Source of the DNA: Halarchaeum nitratireducens
GTDB taxonomy: Archaea > Halobacteriota > Halobacteria > Halobacteriales > Halobacteriaceae
Direction: 5' to 3'
Length of the DNA stretch: 64,000 nt
Assembly (NCBI RefSeq): GCF_014647155.1
Contig: NZ_BMOQ01000002.1
Coordinates: 372,001-436,000 of the forward strand
Part shown: in pieces, positions 21,797-64,000 of the stretch
How positions within the stretch are numbered: position 1 is the stretch's first letter
How the letters are laid out: every line of letters starts with the position of its first letter
Notes under the pieces: model-generated
What the model saw: the letters and a program-made list of their open reading frames with translations, nothing else
Databases searched by the model: none
Told to the model about the DNA's origin: nothing
Program-made: the position numbers and the translations under genes

Positions 21797-22756
21797 ATGA
21801 AGCGACTCGGGCTCCGACTGGCGATGGCGGCGGTCGGTGTCGCGCTCCTCGTCGGATACGTCGGCGCCGCGGCCCTCGCGTACTGGGTGCTCGCCGTCCT
21901 CTGGACGACTCGACCGGATCCGACGACGGCGCTCACGATCGTCGCCGTCGCCGTGATCGTCGTCGGCTCTCTCAGCTACGCGTTCGGGACGCGACACCTC
22001 CTGGCGCGACTCGACGCTGAGCCGATCGCACGGGAGCGCGCGCCCGGACTCTACGACCGGGCGGCGACGCTCTGCGAGCGGATGGACACGGACGTCCCGG
22101 CGTTCTACGTCGGCCGGATGGCGATGCCGAACGCGTTCGCACTCGGCGGCATCGGGACCGGCGTCGTGGTCCTCGATCGCTCGCTCTTCGGTCTCCTCAC
22201 CACGACGGAGCTCGACGCCATTCTCGCGCACGAACTCGCGCACTTAGAGAGCCACGACGGGTTCGTCCGGACGCTCGCGTTCAGCGTCGGCGAGACGCTC
22301 ACGGGGCTCCTGTCGATCGTGCTCTTCCCGGCCGTCCTGTCGACGACCGGGCTGGCGAAGGCCTGGGCGTGGTTCAGCGGTCGACCGGACACGTGGACGC
22401 AGAACCCGGTCGGACGGGTTCGGCGCGTCCTCGATGGGGTGATCGGGTTCGGCCTCATCGCGCTCACGTTCGCCGTCAACGCGCACTCGCGACACCGGGA
22501 GTTCGCCGCGGACGACCGCGCGGCCGACGTGACCGACGACCCGATCGCGCTGGCGCGGGCGCTACGGAAGATCGAACGCGCGAGCCGGCCCACGTGGGCG
22601 GTCCTCTCGCCGTTCTACGTGCACAGCGACGACGACGACGTGGAGAACCCGATCGAGCGGTGGTTCTCCACGCACCCGGATCTCGACGAGCGAGTCGAGC
22701 GTCTCCGGGAGAAGGCGGCCGCGTCGGACGACACCGTTCAGGTTCGTGTCGAGTGA
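21797..22756 (+). CDS. HtpX-like membrane zinc metalloprotease (M48)
   Basis: 319 aa integral membrane protein. Two N-terminal membrane segments (about 8-36 and 43-63) precede the zinc motif HELAH (His145, Glu146, His149); the third ligand is the Glu in HREFAADDRAAD near 231. A further pair of hydrophobic segments lies around 160-190 and 205-225. The family degrades misfolded membrane proteins. The gene ends just before the replication-origin repeats. Confidence 0.88.
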   Translation: MKRLGLRLAMAAVGVALLVGYVGAAALAYWVLAVLWTTRPDPTTALTIVAVAVIVVGSLSYAFGTRHLLARLDAEPIARERAPGLYDRAATLCERMDTDVPAFYVGRMAMPNAFALGGIGTGVVVLDRSLFGLLTTTELDAILAHELAHLESHDGFVRTLAFSVGETLTGLLSIVLFPAVLSTTGLAKAWAWFSGRPDTWTQNPVGRVRRVLDGVIGFGLIALTFAVNAHSRHREFAADDRAADVTDDPIALARALRKIERASRPTWAVLSPFYVHSDDDDVENPIERWFSTHPDLDERVERLREKAAASDDTVQVRVE

Positions 22757-22802
22757 TTCGACGTTCCGATAATCTGCAACCTGAGACGGTCACGACCGAC
22801 GA

Positions 22803-22822
22803 TACTGCGGACAGAGTGGTGT
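22803..22822 (+). repeat. Origin recognition box 1
   Basis: TACTGCGGACAGAGTGGTGT. Exact reverse complement of 22937-22956. Confidence 0.75.
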
Positions 22823-22936
22823 CGGTCGCGCTGGGCCAAGACGGAACAGACGCACATCGATCCACCGATCCCGAACTCTATCGACGGCTATCGTCCCCGT
22901 CGACGGTGCAACAGCGAGGGACTGGATCGACGGGCA

Positions 22937-22956
22937 ACACCACTCTGTCCGCAGTA
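22937..22956 (-). repeat. Origin recognition box 2
   Basis: Perfect 20-nt inverted partner of box 1, 114 nt further right. Confidence 0.75.
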
Positions 22957-23178
22957 AATCGGTCCGAGACGGAAGCAGACGGTGCAGTTGGACGATCGGT
23001 TCACGGCCGAAGAGTCGAAAGGAGTACGAGCCGACGACGTGTGTCGGTCACACGAGTCGAGAGCGAGACGGTACGACCGGGTGGCGACAACCGGCGTGAT
23101 TCGAGACGATGACCGACGAGGGACACCCCACGATGTCCGCTGTTCTTCGAGCGTCCGCGATCCGCGACGACGGGACGA

Positions 23179-23205
23179 ACCCTCCCCCCACTTTGTCCGC
23201 AGTAA
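23179..23205 (-). repeat. Origin recognition box 3
   Basis: 27 nt identical to the reverse complement of 23449-23475, including a G-rich tail that points away from the AT-rich core. Confidence 0.82.
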
Positions 23206-23299
23206 TCGCGTTCGGGGGCACGGACGGGGGGAGAAAGAAGAAGTGTATATTGCTGGTAAATGCGGCACGAGGATATTTTCACCGCCTCTGTCGGGATCG

Positions 23300-23448
23300 G
23301 TAAAGGACGACGCTGTCGGGAACTCCAACGTTTCTAATAACTAACATTTCCTTAATAACCCAGTACGGGTACTATTTGCTATACTCCTACTTAGAACTAT
23401 CGTCCATCTAGAAACTCTTCTCTCACTCCCGCCCCACTATTTTTCTCG
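23300..23448. other. AT-rich candidate duplex-unwinding element
   Basis: Runs such as TTTCTAATAACTAACATTTC and TTGCTATACTCC make this the most AT-rich part of the intergenic region. It lies between the inverted boxes 3 and 4. Confidence 0.65.
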
Positions 23449-23475
23449 TTACTGCGGACAAAGTGGGGGGAGGGT
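23449..23475 (+). repeat. Origin recognition box 4
   Basis: Begins TTACTGCGGACAAAGTGGGG and extends 27 nt as a perfect inverted copy of box 3. Confidence 0.82.
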
Positions 23476-23526
23476 CGTGGCCGAAATCTTGATGTGCCAT
23501 CGTTCGTCGTATATATATTCTGTAGA

Positions 23527-23551
23527 ACTGCGGACACTGCGGACGCGGTGG
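23527..23551 (+). repeat. Origin recognition box 5, overlapping the orc1 promoter
   Basis: ACTGCGGAC is repeated in tandem (23527-23535, 23536-23544) and the second copy continues as GCGGTGG. It touches the TTTTATTA TATA box of orc1, so Orc1 binding here could repress its own gene. Confidence 0.65.
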
Positions 23552-23559
23552 TTTTATTA
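23552..23559 (+). promoter_or_regulatory. orc1 TATA box
   Basis: TTTTATTA centred about 28 nt before ATG 23584, consistent with a leaderless mRNA. Confidence 0.6.
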
Positions 23560-23583
23560 TGCGATCCGACGAGGGGTGTTCGT

Positions 23584-24906
23584 ATGGGACTCTTCGAGCG
23601 GGACACCGATATCTATCGGGACCGCGACGCGCTTCGGGAGGACTACCAGCCGGCCGAGCTGGTCGGGCGGGACGAGGAACTCTCCACCTACACGTCCGCC
23701 CTCCAGCCGGTCATCAACGGCGAGCAGCCGAACAACGTCTTCCTCTACGGGAAGACTGGCGTCGGGAAGACCGCCGCGACGCGCTACCTCCTCGACCACC
23801 TCCGGGAGGACGCCGAGGAGTACGACGACATCGCCCTCGACATCATTTTCCTCAACTGTGACGGGCTCTCCTCTTCCTATCAGGTCGCGACCCATCTCGT
23901 GAACGAACTGCGCGCCGAGCACAATCAGATCAGCACGACGGGCTACCCGCTCGCGACGGTGTACGAGATGCTCTGGGAGGACCTCGATTCCCACGGCGGG
24001 ACCGTCCTCATAGTCCTCGACGAGATCGACAACATCGGCGACGACTCCATTCTCTATCAGCTCCCGCGCGCCCGTGCGAACGGCAAGCTCGAAGACACGC
24101 AGGTCGGCCTCATCGGCATCTCCAACGACTTCTCCTTCCGCGACGACCTCTCCCCCAAGGTCAAGTCCTCGCTCTGTGAGAACGAGATCCACTTCCCCGC
24201 CTACGACGCCACCGACCTGAAGGCCATCCTGAAACAGCGCGCGGACGTCGCGTTCCACGACGGCGTTCTCGACGACGGCGTCATCCCGCTCTGTGCGGCC
24301 TACGGCGCGAAGGACGCCGGCGACGCCCGCCAGTCGATCGACCTCCTGATGAAGGCGGGTGACGTCGCGCGCGACGACGAGGCGACCACGATTACCGAAG
24401 ACCACGTCGATCGCGGCCGCACCGCGCTCGAACGCGGCCGCATCGAAGAGGGGATCAGGGGGCTCACCGAACACGGCCACCTCGTCCTCTACGCGCTCGT
24501 GACGAACGATCTAGAGGGCGAAACGCCGATCCGCTCGCGCGACGTCCGCCCGCGGTACACGCGCTTCGCCGAACTCGCGGAACGCGATCCGCTCGTCCCG
24601 CGCCGGATGCGCGATCACCTGAGCGAACTCGCCATGCTCGGGATCATCTCCGTGACCGAGCGCAACGAGGGCCGTCGCGGCGGGACGTACCGGGAGTACG
24701 AACTCGACATGCCCGTCGAGCAGGTGTTGAGCGCGCTCTCGGAGACCGTGAAACTCGTCGGCGTCCACGAGTCCGTCGTCGAACTCGCCGAGGACGCTAT
24801 GCCGGATCTCACGACGGCGGTCGCCAGCACCGAGGGCGACGGATCGGATGGTGAGACACGGGCCGACCCGGATCGCTCGGACGCGTCGTTGGCGTCCTTC
24901 GAGTAG
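23584..24906 (+). CDS. orc1: Orc1/Cdc6 replication initiator
   Basis: Binds origin boxes and recruits the MCM helicase. 440 aa from ATG 23584, chosen over upstream in-frame starts because of the TATA box spacing. AAA+ motifs: Walker A YGKTGVGKTAATR (GKTGVGKT 56-63), Walker B VLIVLDEIDN (141-150), sensor-1 region GLIGISNDFSF. The C-terminal third is the winged-helix DNA-binding domain (about 320-410), followed by an acidic tail. Flanking boxes with one shared sequence suggest this protein is their cognate binder. Confidence 0.95.
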   Translation: MGLFERDTDIYRDRDALREDYQPAELVGRDEELSTYTSALQPVINGEQPNNVFLYGKTGVGKTAATRYLLDHLREDAEEYDDIALDIIFLNCDGLSSSYQVATHLVNELRAEHNQISTTGYPLATVYEMLWEDLDSHGGTVLIVLDEIDNIGDDSILYQLPRARANGKLEDTQVGLIGISNDFSFRDDLSPKVKSSLCENEIHFPAYDATDLKAILKQRADVAFHDGVLDDGVIPLCAAYGAKDAGDARQSIDLLMKAGDVARDDEATTITEDHVDRGRTALERGRIEEGIRGLTEHGHLVLYALVTNDLEGETPIRSRDVRPRYTRFAELAERDPLVPRRMRDHLSELAMLGIISVTERNEGRRGGTYREYELDMPVEQVLSALSETVKLVGVHESVVELAEDAMPDLTTAVASTEGDGSDGETRADPDRSDASLASFE

Positions 24907-24956
24907 CGCTCCCCGAGCGGGGCCAGCGGCCCCGCCCGCCGTCCCTCCGCGATCGA

Positions 24957-24979
24957 TTACTGCGGACACGGTGGGGTAG
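24957..24979 (+). repeat. Origin recognition box 6
   Basis: Starts TTACTGCGGACACGGTGGGG, 50 nt after the orc1 stop. Confidence 0.7.
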
Positions 24980-25020
24980 GCGGTGGCCCCGTCCGCCGTC
25001 CCGATCGGTCACGCCGACGA

Positions 25021-61065: not shown

Positions 61066-61497
61066 ATGCCCGCGGCCGTCCCAGTCGCCGATGTGAACCA
61101 CGATGACGACGTCGCCGCCATCGAGCGACTCAAACACCGGTACGCGTACCGCATCGACGACGGTGACTACGACGCGTGGGTCGCCCTCTTCACCGACGAC
61201 GGCCGCTTCTGTGGCGACGACGGAACGGCCTTCGAGGGCCACGAGGAACTCCGGACGTTCGCCACCGAGGTCTTCGACGACGCGTACGTCGAGACCGCCC
61301 ACACCCTGACGAACGGCGTCGTCGACGTCGAGGGCGACACGGCTACGGGCCGCTGGTACCTCGCGCTCTACCAGGAGACCGCCGACGGCGAGACCGCCGT
61401 CCAGCAGGCCACCTACGAGGACGCCTTCGAGCGCGTCGACGACACGTGGCGAATCGCCGACGTCGACCTCACCTACGGCGTCCGACTGCCGCGCTGA
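61066..61497 (+). CDS. SnoaL-like (NTF2-fold) protein
   Basis: 143 aa from ATG 61066, or 134 aa from GTG 61093. The CTTATG element at 61062 sits about 29 nt before the GTG and supports the shorter form. NTF2-like cone fold with LKHRYAYRIDDGDYDAWVAL and FTDDGRF, the pattern of SnoaL_4 proteins such as dehydratases and ring-hydroxylating dioxygenase small subunits. Function unknown. Confidence 0.8.
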   Translation: MPAAVPVADVNHDDDVAAIERLKHRYAYRIDDGDYDAWVALFTDDGRFCGDDGTAFEGHEELRTFATEVFDDAYVETAHTLTNGVVDVEGDTATGRWYLALYQETADGETAVQQATYEDAFERVDDTWRIADVDLTYGVRLPR

Positions 61498-61529
61498 ATC
61501 GGGATTTCAGGCGACGACGGTGTCGCGCC

Positions 61530-61551
61530 CACACACCCGACACCGAGTGAA
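61530..61551 (-). repeat. Iteron 1 (reverse)
   Basis: Four mismatches from the consensus whose core is TCACTCGTTGTGGGGTGTGT; reverse orientation. Confidence 0.55.
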
Positions 61552-61585
61552 AGAACGATAGTCCGAGTCGTGTCCGACCTACCTG

Positions 61586-61607
61586 GTCACTCGTTGTGGG
61601 GTGTGTC
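61586..61607 (+). repeat. Iteron 2 (forward)
   Basis: Identical over 22 nt to iteron 5; core TCACTCGTTGTGGGGTGTGT. Confidence 0.75.
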
Positions 61608-61641
61608 TGGCGGCAGTGCATCACTCCCTTCGACCCCGTCA

Positions 61642-61663
61642 GTCACTCGTTATGAGCTGTGTC
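61642..61663 (+). repeat. Iteron 3 (forward)
   Basis: Three mismatches from iteron 2 (TTATGAGCTG in place of TTGTGGGGTG). Confidence 0.65.
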
Positions 61664-61695
61664 TCCACTCACGCCTTTTCGCCTCTCAACGACGG

Positions 61696-61717
61696 GACAC
61701 ACCGGACACCGAGTGAC
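61696..61717 (-). repeat. Iteron 4 (reverse)
   Basis: Reverse complement has three mismatches from iteron 2. Confidence 0.65.
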
Positions 61718-61765
61718 TTCGACGACTACCGCGATTGGCTCCCCCCTTCGTGCGACGATTCCGGA

Positions 61766-61787
61766 GTCACTCGTTGTGGGGTGTGTC
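61766..61787 (+). repeat. Iteron 5 (forward)
   Basis: 22 nt identical to iteron 2. Confidence 0.75.
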
Positions 61788-61820
61788 CGGTCGGTAGTAC
61801 GTCCCCCTCCGATCCCGTCA

Positions 61821-61842
61821 GTCACTCGTTGCGGGGTGTGTC
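61821..61842 (+). repeat. Iteron 6 (forward)
   Basis: One mismatch from iterons 2 and 5 (TTGCGGGG). Confidence 0.72.
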
Positions 61843-62051
61843 GGTCGCTCCGCTCCGTCGACGACGTGACGACCTATTCCCCCACCGCCTCTTCCACGAC
61901 CGTCGACCATCTTTTTCGGGTTCGAGTCGCCTCCGGCGACCGCTCACCGCAAAAACACGGTCCGCGCGAGCAACGCGAGTGCGCGACTAGCGGGGCCGCA
62001 GGTCCCGCGAGGGTGAAAAATTCCGAGCACTTCGCGCTCGACGTTCCCGCT

Positions 62052-64000
62052 CTACTCGCCGACCGCTTCTTCCATGATCTCGATCTCCTCCTTGGTGAGG
62101 TCGTAGAGGTCGTAGACGATCTCGTCGATCAGCCGATCCGTCTCCTCGATCTTCTCGTCGAGCTCCGCGGCGCGCTCCCTCGTCTCCGCGTAGCGTTCGA
62201 GGTCCGCCGCGACGTCGTCGGGATCGGGGAGCGTGATCGCTTTCAGGCGGTCCACGAGCGAGTTCGTCTTCGTCGCGTTGTCCCGAAAGCCCGCGAACCC
62301 GTCCGCCTCCGCGACGGCGACGGGGACGAACGCCTCGATCAGCGTCGCTTCCGTCTCGTCGAGGTCCGCGAGCGCGAACGCCTCGTGGTAGTCCGTCTCC
62401 GTGTAGCCCCAGCGGTCCGTCTCGTGTGCGTCCTCGTCCTCCGGCTTGTAGCGCGCCGTCGCCTCCACCGTCACGCGACGGCCGTCGCGGACCGTCCGCA
62501 CCTCGCCGACGCGCAGTTTCTCGTACGCCTCCGTCGTCGCGTCCAACACGGTCGCGCCCGTCGGCTGATAGAGCCCGACGTCGGGCAGTTTCGGGCCCTC
62601 GGCGTAGTTCCCGAGGTAGTCGAGGAGGGAGAGATTGAGGGATGCGCGGTCAGATTTGTGTGAAAGGATCCGTCGCACCAAGTAGGAAATCGCTTCTTGA
62701 TCGGGGTTTTGTTCCCGAATCGCTTCGTAGGGCATCGCTTGCACCTCCCCGGGATCACATAGCATCTCACCGAATGACTTCTCTACTGGTGGGATTGGGA
62801 TAGCGGAGAGATACGATGCGAGTGTATGCCGGAAATCTCCTTCAAGAACCGGCGAATTATGATAGATATAAAACCACGCTGGGGTGCTGTTTAGGATTCC
62901 GAGGAGATATGCTCTCATCCCTTTCGTATTTTCCTTCGGAACAAGCCCGTACCCAGAATTTGGTATATACACTCCCCCTTCGTCATCGATGGTGAATTCA
63001 CTCCGCTCACAGATGTCCGGTACGAGGAGTTTCGGGCTCTCCCAGAGGGATTTCTCACGCGGACGCCACAGCGCGTGCCATGAAGGATACTCCATAGTCT
63101 TGCTTCCCCTGTCGCCCAGCCGCTCTCTAAACGAACCCAGATACTCGTACGTTTTTGGGTATTTAGATTTAATAATATCCTCGCTAATCAGCTCAGTGGA
63201 TCCCGAGTCGATACTATACGGATATATCACTGCCAAGTCTGTCTTTAGCGGCGAATACCTATATATCTCATCTCCGGCTATCAGTGGATGCACGAGATCA
63301 CTCTCTATCGGATACTCGTTCCCGTTCACGCTTGACTTGATTCGAGTTTCATTCCCCCGTTCTTCCACTACCTCCACGAACAGCACGTCGTTATCGCCAG
63401 AAACGACCCCTTCGGAGATGTATTCGGTGTACGTCTCCAGTCGGTTCCCGACTGTCTCCATCTGCGAAAGAATTGGCTTCTCCCTCGGCCCCACCAATGT
63501 CCACGGATTGTCGTCTAAATCTTCTAACTCGACTTCAACGCTCGGCAACGACCCCACCTCTTCTGGGCTGTCAACACCATCATACGCCTCGATATACTGG
63601 AACTGATCTTGCCGCTCCGATAACGACATTATACAGGTGTACGTGATCGCTCCATCGAATACCTGAAAATCACCGAAGTCAACGATCTCGGAGATGGCTT
63701 GCTTATCGAGTAGGTATTCTCTGAGACCCTTTCCGCCGTCGGATTTGAAGAATTTATTCGGGAGTATGTACGTCAAACGTCCTTTTGACGCTAATGAGTA
63801 TCCGCGCTCAACGAACGGCGCATAAATATCGAACCGTGCCTCCGTTGTTGTGTACTCCGGACTATTCACCAGATAATCGGCTAGCTCTGAGTGACTCTGT
63901 CGGAGATTTTGTATCTTCACGTACGGCGGATTCCCGATCACGGCATCGAACCCCGCGTTCGCCAGCCGTTCGCCGTCGTCGCCGTAGAAGGCGACGGGGA
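62052..64000 (-). CDS. Type IIG-like (Eco57I-type) DNA N6-adenine methyltransferase/restriction protein, 5' end outside window
   Basis: About 649 codons are visible and the frame stays open to the window edge, so the N-terminal part is missing. The methyltransferase motif IV lies in FDAVIGNPPYVK at about 63906-63950; a GTG at 63939-63941 is internal, not the start. ILPNKFFKSDGGKGLREYL follows as in Eco57I/BREX PglX-type enzymes, then a target-recognition region with GILNSTPAWFYIYH, and a C-terminal coiled-coil ending in YDLYDLTKEEIEIMEEAV. The recognition part (about 62640-63900) is clearly AT-richer than the last 600 nt. No partner gene of an R-M or BREX system is visible. Confidence 0.87.
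   Translation of the reverse strand, partial: PVAFYGDDGERLANAGFDAVIGNPPYVKIQNLRQSHSELADYLVNSPEYTTTEARFDIYAPFVERGYSLASKGRLTYILPNKFFKSDGGKGLREYLLDKQAISEIVDFGDFQVFDGAITYTCIMSLSERQDQFQYIEAYDGVDSPEEVGSLPSVEVELEDLDDNPWTLVGPREKPILSQMETVGNRLETYTEYISEGVVSGDNDVLFVEVVEERGNETRIKSSVNGNEYPIESDLVHPLIAGDEIYRYSPLKTDLAVIYPYSIDSGSTELISEDIIKSKYPKTYEYLGSFRERLGDRGSKTMEYPSWHALWRPREKSLWESPKLLVPDICERSEFTIDDEGGVYIPNSGYGLVPKENTKGMRAYLLGILNSTPAWFYIYHNSPVLEGDFRHTLASYLSAIPIPPVEKSFGEMLCDPGEVQAMPYEAIREQNPDQEAISYLVRRILSHKSDRASLNLSLLDYLGNYAEGPKLPDVGLYQPTGATVLDATTEAYEKLRVGEVRTVRDGRRVTVEATARYKPEDEDAHETDRWGYTETDYHEAFALADLDETEATLIEAFVPVAVAEADGFAGFRDNATKTNSLVDRLKAITLPDPDDVAADLERYAETRERAAELDEKIEETDRLIDEIVYDLYDLTKEEIEIMEEAVGE

What the first reader, a model, noticed from the sequence alone, without database searches (positions are those of the whole stretch)
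61530..61842. Six 22-nt iterons at about 55-bp spacing with mixed orientation
Copies start at 61530(-), 61586(+), 61642(+), 61696(-), 61766(+) and 61821(+); start-to-start steps are 56, 56, 54, 70 and 55. Two copies are identical. The sequence is unrelated to the orc1 boxes at 23 kb, but G-rich inverted iterons of this length resemble origin or partition sites. They lie just downstream of a DNA methyltransferase gene, so they might instead be sites of a plasmid-like or defence element.
Basis: seen in the sequence. Interest (0 to 1): 0.6.

Follow-up and report, generated by a model that had tools for sequence, protein, structure and literature searches.

The report
Orphan replication-initiator binding-site array
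Between two ordinary genes of a salt-loving archaeon lie six intact docking sites for a DNA-replication starter protein (type Cdc6D), but neither that protein's gene nor the easily melted DNA of a real origin is there, so the array is probably a sponge for the starter protein or a preserved relic rather than a start site.

Summary
Six copies of TCACTCGKTRNNNGGTGTGTS lie at 61530(-), 61587(+), 61643(+), 61696(-), 61767(+) and 61822(+) in a convergent intergenic gap; shuffled sequence gives none. The repeats are origin recognition boxes (ORBs) of one Orc1/Cdc6 lineage. In other haloarchaea the same box, at the same ~55-bp pitch, surrounds an orc1 gene of a single clade that includes Cdc6D of Haloarcula hispanica (oriC3-cdc6D). 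A matrix built only from those foreign boxes scores the six window boxes like genuine ones and finds no other site in 64 kb. The window array is not an origin of the known plan. No orc1 lies within 9 kb, no Cdc6D ortholog was found in the genome (best 54%), there is no AT-rich element (peak 48% against 64-78% at linked origins), and the GC-skew peak sits at the orc1 at 23.6 kb. The array recurs beside the same gene in two sister species; 2 of 195 core positions deviate, so the boxes look maintained. Best reading: an orphan Cdc6D-type ORB array working in trans as an initiator-titration or incompatibility site, with a preserved relic as main rival. The protein that reads it is unknown. The neighbouring Type IIG restriction gene shows no link.

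The parts
61530..61550 (-). ORB 1 (TCACTCGGTGTCGGGTGTGTG)
   Evidence: score 31.0 with matrix built from foreign Cdc6D-linked boxes (their median 31.3)
61587..61607 (+). ORB 2 (TCACTCGTTGTGGGGTGTGTC)
   Evidence: score 33.5
61643..61663 (+). ORB 3 (TCACTCGTTATGAGCTGTGTC; one core mismatch, G15 to C)
   Evidence: score 28.8
61696..61716 (-). ORB 4 (TCACTCGGTGTCCGGTGTGTC)
   Evidence: score 30.5
61767..61787 (+). ORB 5 (identical to ORB 2)
   Evidence: score 33.5
61822..61842 (+). ORB 6 (TCACTCGTTGCGGGGTGTGTC)
   Evidence: score 33.1
61498..62051 (.). convergent intergenic gap that holds the array; 37% A+T, no 50-bp stretch above 48% A+T
61066..61497 (+). left neighbour: SnoaL-like protein gene (PF13577)
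62052..64000 (-). right neighbour (3' part; runs out of the window): Type IIG restriction-methylase, Eco57I / DrmMI-like, 1439 aa in full

Best explanation
The six repeats are origin recognition boxes of the Cdc6D dialect that form an orphan array, without an initiator gene and without an unwinding element. SHOWN by comparison: box identity, box pitch, absence of a linked orc1 and of an AT-rich element, no Cdc6D ortholog found in the genome, preservation of the box core at the same locus in three species. INFERRED: an Orc1/Cdc6-type initiator supplied in trans (another Orc1 of the cell, or one carried by incoming replicons of the Cdc6D type) binds the array, and the array works as a titration or incompatibility site that lowers firing of replicons using that initiator, as the ORB-rich region oriC2D does for Cdc6E in Haloarcula hispanica. 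It does not itself start replication.
For: 1) The class-wide pattern scan finds the box in 121 of 391 haloarchaeal genomes, mainly as arrays. 21 of about 35 box regions fetched from other genera contain an orc1 of one clade (the Cdc6D clade, 100/100 support, or its sister, 100/99) inside the array; plasmid pHTUR04 shows the same. 2) The clade includes H. hispanica Cdc6D: G116 has contigs of 488,918, 405,816 and 2,995,271 bp, and an IS200/IS605-type insertion splits its boxes as published for oriC3-cdc6D (PMC4441112). 3) A matrix from 93 linked boxes, none from this genus, scores the six boxes 28.8-33.5 (linked median 31.3) and finds nothing else in 64 kb at >=10. 4) Same pitch: 57/56/53/71/55 here; 53-58 is the commonest spacing at linked arrays, e.g. 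54/56/56 in L159 and 53/58/54 on pHTUR04. 5) No orc1 in the 19.5 kb around it; best genome match to Cdc6D 54%, 42-45% in the two sister species that hold the array. 6) A+T peak 48% against 64-78% at 14 linked origins. 7) The GC-skew maximum lies at the 23.6-kb orc1, 38 kb away. 8) In 13 boxes of three species 2 of 195 core positions deviate; G000-G003 flanks differ by 8.6% and all 5 differences in the two outer boxes fall on degenerate positions (chance 0.002); G001 spacers are unalignable yet its five boxes are intact but for one base. 9) Precedent: oriC2D (11 ORBs in 722 bp) has no ARS activity and lowers replication of an oriC2 plasmid in trans (PMC3936714); Cdc6 proteins act in trans.
Against: No candidate reader is identified: no Orc1 shared by the three array-bearing species is close to Cdc6D, and one candidate lineage (C7:171077 type) does not track the array across genomes. 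Titration is by analogy only. The draft genome (98.2% complete) could lack a replicon that carries cdc6D. Preservation in three related species could partly reflect recent common ancestry or repeat homogenisation. One box (61643) has lost a core G. Orphan arrays in Haloarcula look like recent losses of cdc6D.
Confidence: 0.5

Rival explanations
1. Relic: an oriC3-cdc6D-type origin (or an integrated Cdc6D plasmid) once stood here; initiator gene and unwinding element were lost, and the boxes persist without function.
For: Origin gain, loss and disruption around cdc6D is documented in Haloarcula (PMC4441112). Orphan arrays without cdc6D also occur in other genomes (G213, G289, G390, G181, G186). 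Box number varies: 6, 5 and 2 in three species.
Against: Box cores are almost unchanged (2/195) while flanks and degenerate positions vary; position kept in three species although the initiator is missing in all three.
Confidence: 0.33
2. Trans-served or dormant origin: the array fires when another Orc1 loads on it.
For: Inverted ORBs; Cdc6 proteins can act in trans (PMC3936714) and dormant origins exist in haloarchaea (PMC4595724).
Against: No AT-rich element; known dormant origins have adjacent cdc6 genes; an orc1-linked origin with a GC-skew peak lies only 38 kb away; the comparable gene-less cluster oriC2D had no ARS activity.
Confidence: 0.1
3. The boxes belong to the adjacent Type IIG restriction gene (defence element or its regulation).
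For: In the genus the array and this gene copy occur together in three species and both are absent at the locus in G002.
Against: Boxes lie at the 3' end of the gene, not its promoter; pattern hits in the genus fall at this locus and not at the gene's paralogs elsewhere; arrays in other genera sit at orc1 genes or beside other genes.
Confidence: 0.04
4. Partition (centromere-like) site.
For: Iterons of this size in general.
Against: No ParA/ParB gene beside the array; linked arrays elsewhere contain orc1 genes, and no consistent par gene was seen among the ORFs listed there.
Confidence: 0.02

Closest known systems
oriC3-cdc6D of Haloarcula hispanica and relatives (PMC4441112)
   Same: same box sequence, ~55-bp pitch, mixed orientation
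   Different: there the boxes flank cdc6D and an AT-rich element; here both are missing
oriC2D, the ORB-rich region downstream of cdc6E in H. hispanica (PMC3936714)
   Same: dense ORB cluster (11 in 722 bp there; 6 in 313 bp here), acts or would act on an initiator without being an origin
   Different: oriC2D adjoins its own initiator gene and origin; the window array has no cognate initiator in the known genome
datA of Escherichia coli (DnaA titration locus; cited in PMC3936714)
   Same: initiator-binding boxes away from the origin
   Different: different initiator family; function not tested here
Two-dialect origins such as Hla_3512 and HQ2959A (PMC3528665)
   Same: boxes of a dialect that does not belong to the nearby initiator
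   Different: those have an orc1 gene beside them; here none

Membership tests
Cdc6D-type ORB | matches the box consensus of loci linked to the Cdc6D clade | tested here: met
   scores 28.8-33.5 against linked median 31.3; unique in 64 kb
Cdc6D-type ORB | bound by Cdc6D or another Orc1 | not testable with these tools
   needs gel shift or ChIP
orc1/cdc6-adjacent haloarchaeal replication origin | orc1/cdc6 gene directly adjacent | tested here: not met
   no Orc1 by tblastn in 19.5 kb around the array
orc1/cdc6-adjacent haloarchaeal replication origin | AT-rich unwinding element between inverted ORBs | tested here: not met
   A+T peak 48% per 50 bp against 64-78% at 14 linked loci
orc1/cdc6-adjacent haloarchaeal replication origin | inverted ORBs with halophile G-string | tested here: met
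   two - and four + boxes ending in a G-rich GGTGTG stretch
orc1/cdc6-adjacent haloarchaeal replication origin | GC-skew extremum at the site | tested here: not met
   maximum at 22-23 kb, not at 61.5 kb; only a shallow local dip near 63 kb
orc1/cdc6-adjacent haloarchaeal replication origin | ARS activity or replication-profile peak | not testable with these tools
   experiment needed
initiator-titrating ORB cluster (oriC2D-like) | dense ORB cluster without unwinding element | tested here: met
   6 ORBs in 313 bp, 39% A+T
initiator-titrating ORB cluster (oriC2D-like) | adjacent to the initiator it titrates | tested here: not met
   no cognate orc1 found
initiator-titrating ORB cluster (oriC2D-like) | lowers activity of the cognate origin | not testable with these tools
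   plasmid assay needed
common dispersed repeat | many copies scattered over the genome | tested here: not met
   6 copies here, only scattered weaker single matches elsewhere

The most novel reading that the evidence does not exclude
Haloarchaeal chromosomes keep orphan ORB arrays for initiators they do not encode, as decoys that soak up the Cdc6D initiator of incoming plasmids: a DNA-only incompatibility barrier against foreign replicons.
Probability: 0.12. Interest if true: 0.8.

Novelty: new variant of a known kind. Interest (0 to 1): 0.5.

Why it matters
Haloarchaeal replicons are described as matched pairs of initiator gene and box set. An intact box set kept in three species without its initiator breaks that rule, gives a test of whether other Orc1 proteins read foreign dialects, and suggests a simple DNA element for copy control or plasmid exclusion. 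It also shows that box searches alone will call false origins.

Tried and rejected
Small zinc-finger gene on the minus strand: the boxes read as TRCxVCGR-like peptides, but frames break and BLAST matches of that stretch in relatives are the EF-1alpha-like gene by chance. C7:171077-type Orc1 as the trans reader: its kin at G023 has two such boxes, but it carries its own iteron dialect and does not track the array (G004, G008 and G015 have it without arrays; G001 lacks a close one). Viral source: no exact box in viral contigs, no Cdc6D in phage records. Identifying the H. hispanica protein as Cdc6E/oriC2 was considered and replaced by Cdc6D/oriC3 after the insertion and one-box-per-side layout matched the published account. 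In the tree, rows L179, L190 and L197 were mis-framed and are ignored.

Full report
OBSERVATION. The six copies are present with the stated coordinates and orientations. Core: TCACTCGKTRNNNGGTGTGTS. Resampled sequence with the window's dinucleotide make-up gives none with at most two core mismatches; the window has six. The genome otherwise holds only scattered weaker single matches. The array fills most of the left half of a 554-bp gap between the ends of two convergent genes, a SnoaL-like gene and a Type IIG restriction-methylase gene.

WHAT THE BOX IS. A scan of relatives and of 391 genomes of the class showed the same box, mostly in arrays, in 121 genomes. I fetched about 35 such regions from other genera. 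In 21 of them an orc1/cdc6 gene sits inside the array, boxes on one or both sides, often one box inside the gene. A tree of 54 Orc1 rows puts these genes in one clade (18 rows, 100/100) plus a sister pair (100/99); none of the window genome's own Orc1 proteins falls inside. The clade includes Cdc6D of Haloarcula hispanica: genome G116 has contigs of 488,918, 405,816 and 2,995,271 bp (the 489-kb minichromosome is in PMC4441112; the other two sizes are from memory), and an IS200/IS605-type insertion splits the box set as described for oriC3-cdc6D. Named relatives carry the same layout, e.g. Haloterrigena turkmenica plasmid pHTUR04 and contigs of Halobellus captivus and Halorubrum halophilum.

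INDEPENDENT TEST. A matrix built only from 93 boxes at linked loci of other genera scores the six window boxes at 28.8-33.5 (linked boxes: median 31.3, quartiles 29.6-33.5) and nothing else in the window reaches 10. Box pitch agrees: 57, 56, 53, 71, 55 here; 53-58 is the commonest spacing in linked arrays.

WHAT IS MISSING. No Orc1 in 19.5 kb around the array. The genome encodes some 14-16 Orc1 proteins, most with their own box dialect, the closest to Cdc6D being 54% identical with the dialect TTCACTCTTGATCAGGGGTGT. No AT-rich element: highest 50-bp A+T 48%, against 64-78% upstream of 14 linked genes. The GC-skew maximum of the region is at 22-23 kb, where an orc1 with inverted boxes lies. So this is not an origin of the described plan.

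CONSERVATION. Two sister species keep an array at the same place, next to the same gene: G003 with the two outer boxes, G001 with five boxes spread over two contigs that share a 20-bp end inside a box. In 13 boxes of the three species 2 of 195 core positions deviate from consensus, while the degenerate positions vary freely. G000 and G003 flanks differ by 23/269; the five differences in their outer boxes all fall on degenerate positions (chance 0.002). G001 spacers cannot be aligned, yet its boxes are intact but for one base. The fourth species, G002, has the left neighbours but neither the array nor the restriction gene there. This favours selection on the boxes, though common ancestry and repeat homogenisation weaken the argument.

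MECHANISM. PMC3936714 shows that an ORB-rich region without an origin (oriC2D, 11 ORBs in 722 bp) lacks ARS activity and reduces replication of an oriC2 plasmid in trans, likely by titrating Cdc6E, and that Cdc6 proteins work in trans. The window array has the same anatomy minus the neighbouring initiator. I therefore propose titration or incompatibility towards an initiator supplied in trans (0.5), with a preserved relic next (0.33).

GENERALITY. Orphan boxes of this dialect also occur without a cdc6D in other genomes: arrays with no orc1 close by (G213, G289, G181, G186, G390), and boxes placed beside a different Orc1 (G009 and G023, where that Orc1 has its own second dialect; G132, G179, G237). 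Literature that I could search describes origins with two dialects (PMC3528665) and gain, loss and disruption of cdc6D origins (PMC4441112), but I found no description of initiator-less arrays kept across species; many papers are outside the library.

Noticed in passing
L160:5312, L159:5695, L156:5897, L207:10184 and others: A Cdc6D-type box lies inside the cdc6D coding sequence at about +210, where TCACTCGTTACGAGGTGTGTC reads SLVTRCV directly after the Walker A motif; the box is kept in many species.
   Followed up: partly
L041:8792-10909 (G009); L078:9500-10300 (G023): Origins with two box dialects at one locus: the resident Orc1's own boxes plus Cdc6D-type boxes, in genomes without a close cdc6D.
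   Followed up: partly
G000:C12 (43,535 bp; L043, L109, L110): Contig with overlapping ends (circular plasmid) carrying ParA, orc1 and an integrase; one Cdc6D-type box (4465) lies about 25 bp from a GCGGAAACGGTGGTGTGG box of the plasmid's own dialect.
   Followed up: partly
window 22000-25000: Sharp maximum of cumulative GC skew at the orc1 gene 23611-24705 with inverted boxes ACTGCGGACAAAGTGGGGGG at 23176(-) and 23451(+): a likely long-used chromosomal origin.
   Followed up: partly
L104:6100-7950 (G000:C7): Orc1 gene flanked by iterons of the type AGTACRTTTCGTATG without a G-string, an unusual dialect shared with G023 (L078).
   Followed up: partly
window 61850-62050: Non-coding stretch right of the array, about 91% identical in G003 and absent in G001; function unknown.
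   Followed up: no
window 61066-61497 and L036:14491-14859: Two SnoaL-like paralogs (54% identical) flank the array plus restriction gene; G002 has one copy and neither array nor restriction gene there.
   Followed up: partly
L040:160-4280 (G001:C161): The Type IIG gene of G001 is split or frameshifted and strongly diverged in its middle part (about 41% identity), as if the specificity region had been swapped.
   Followed up: no
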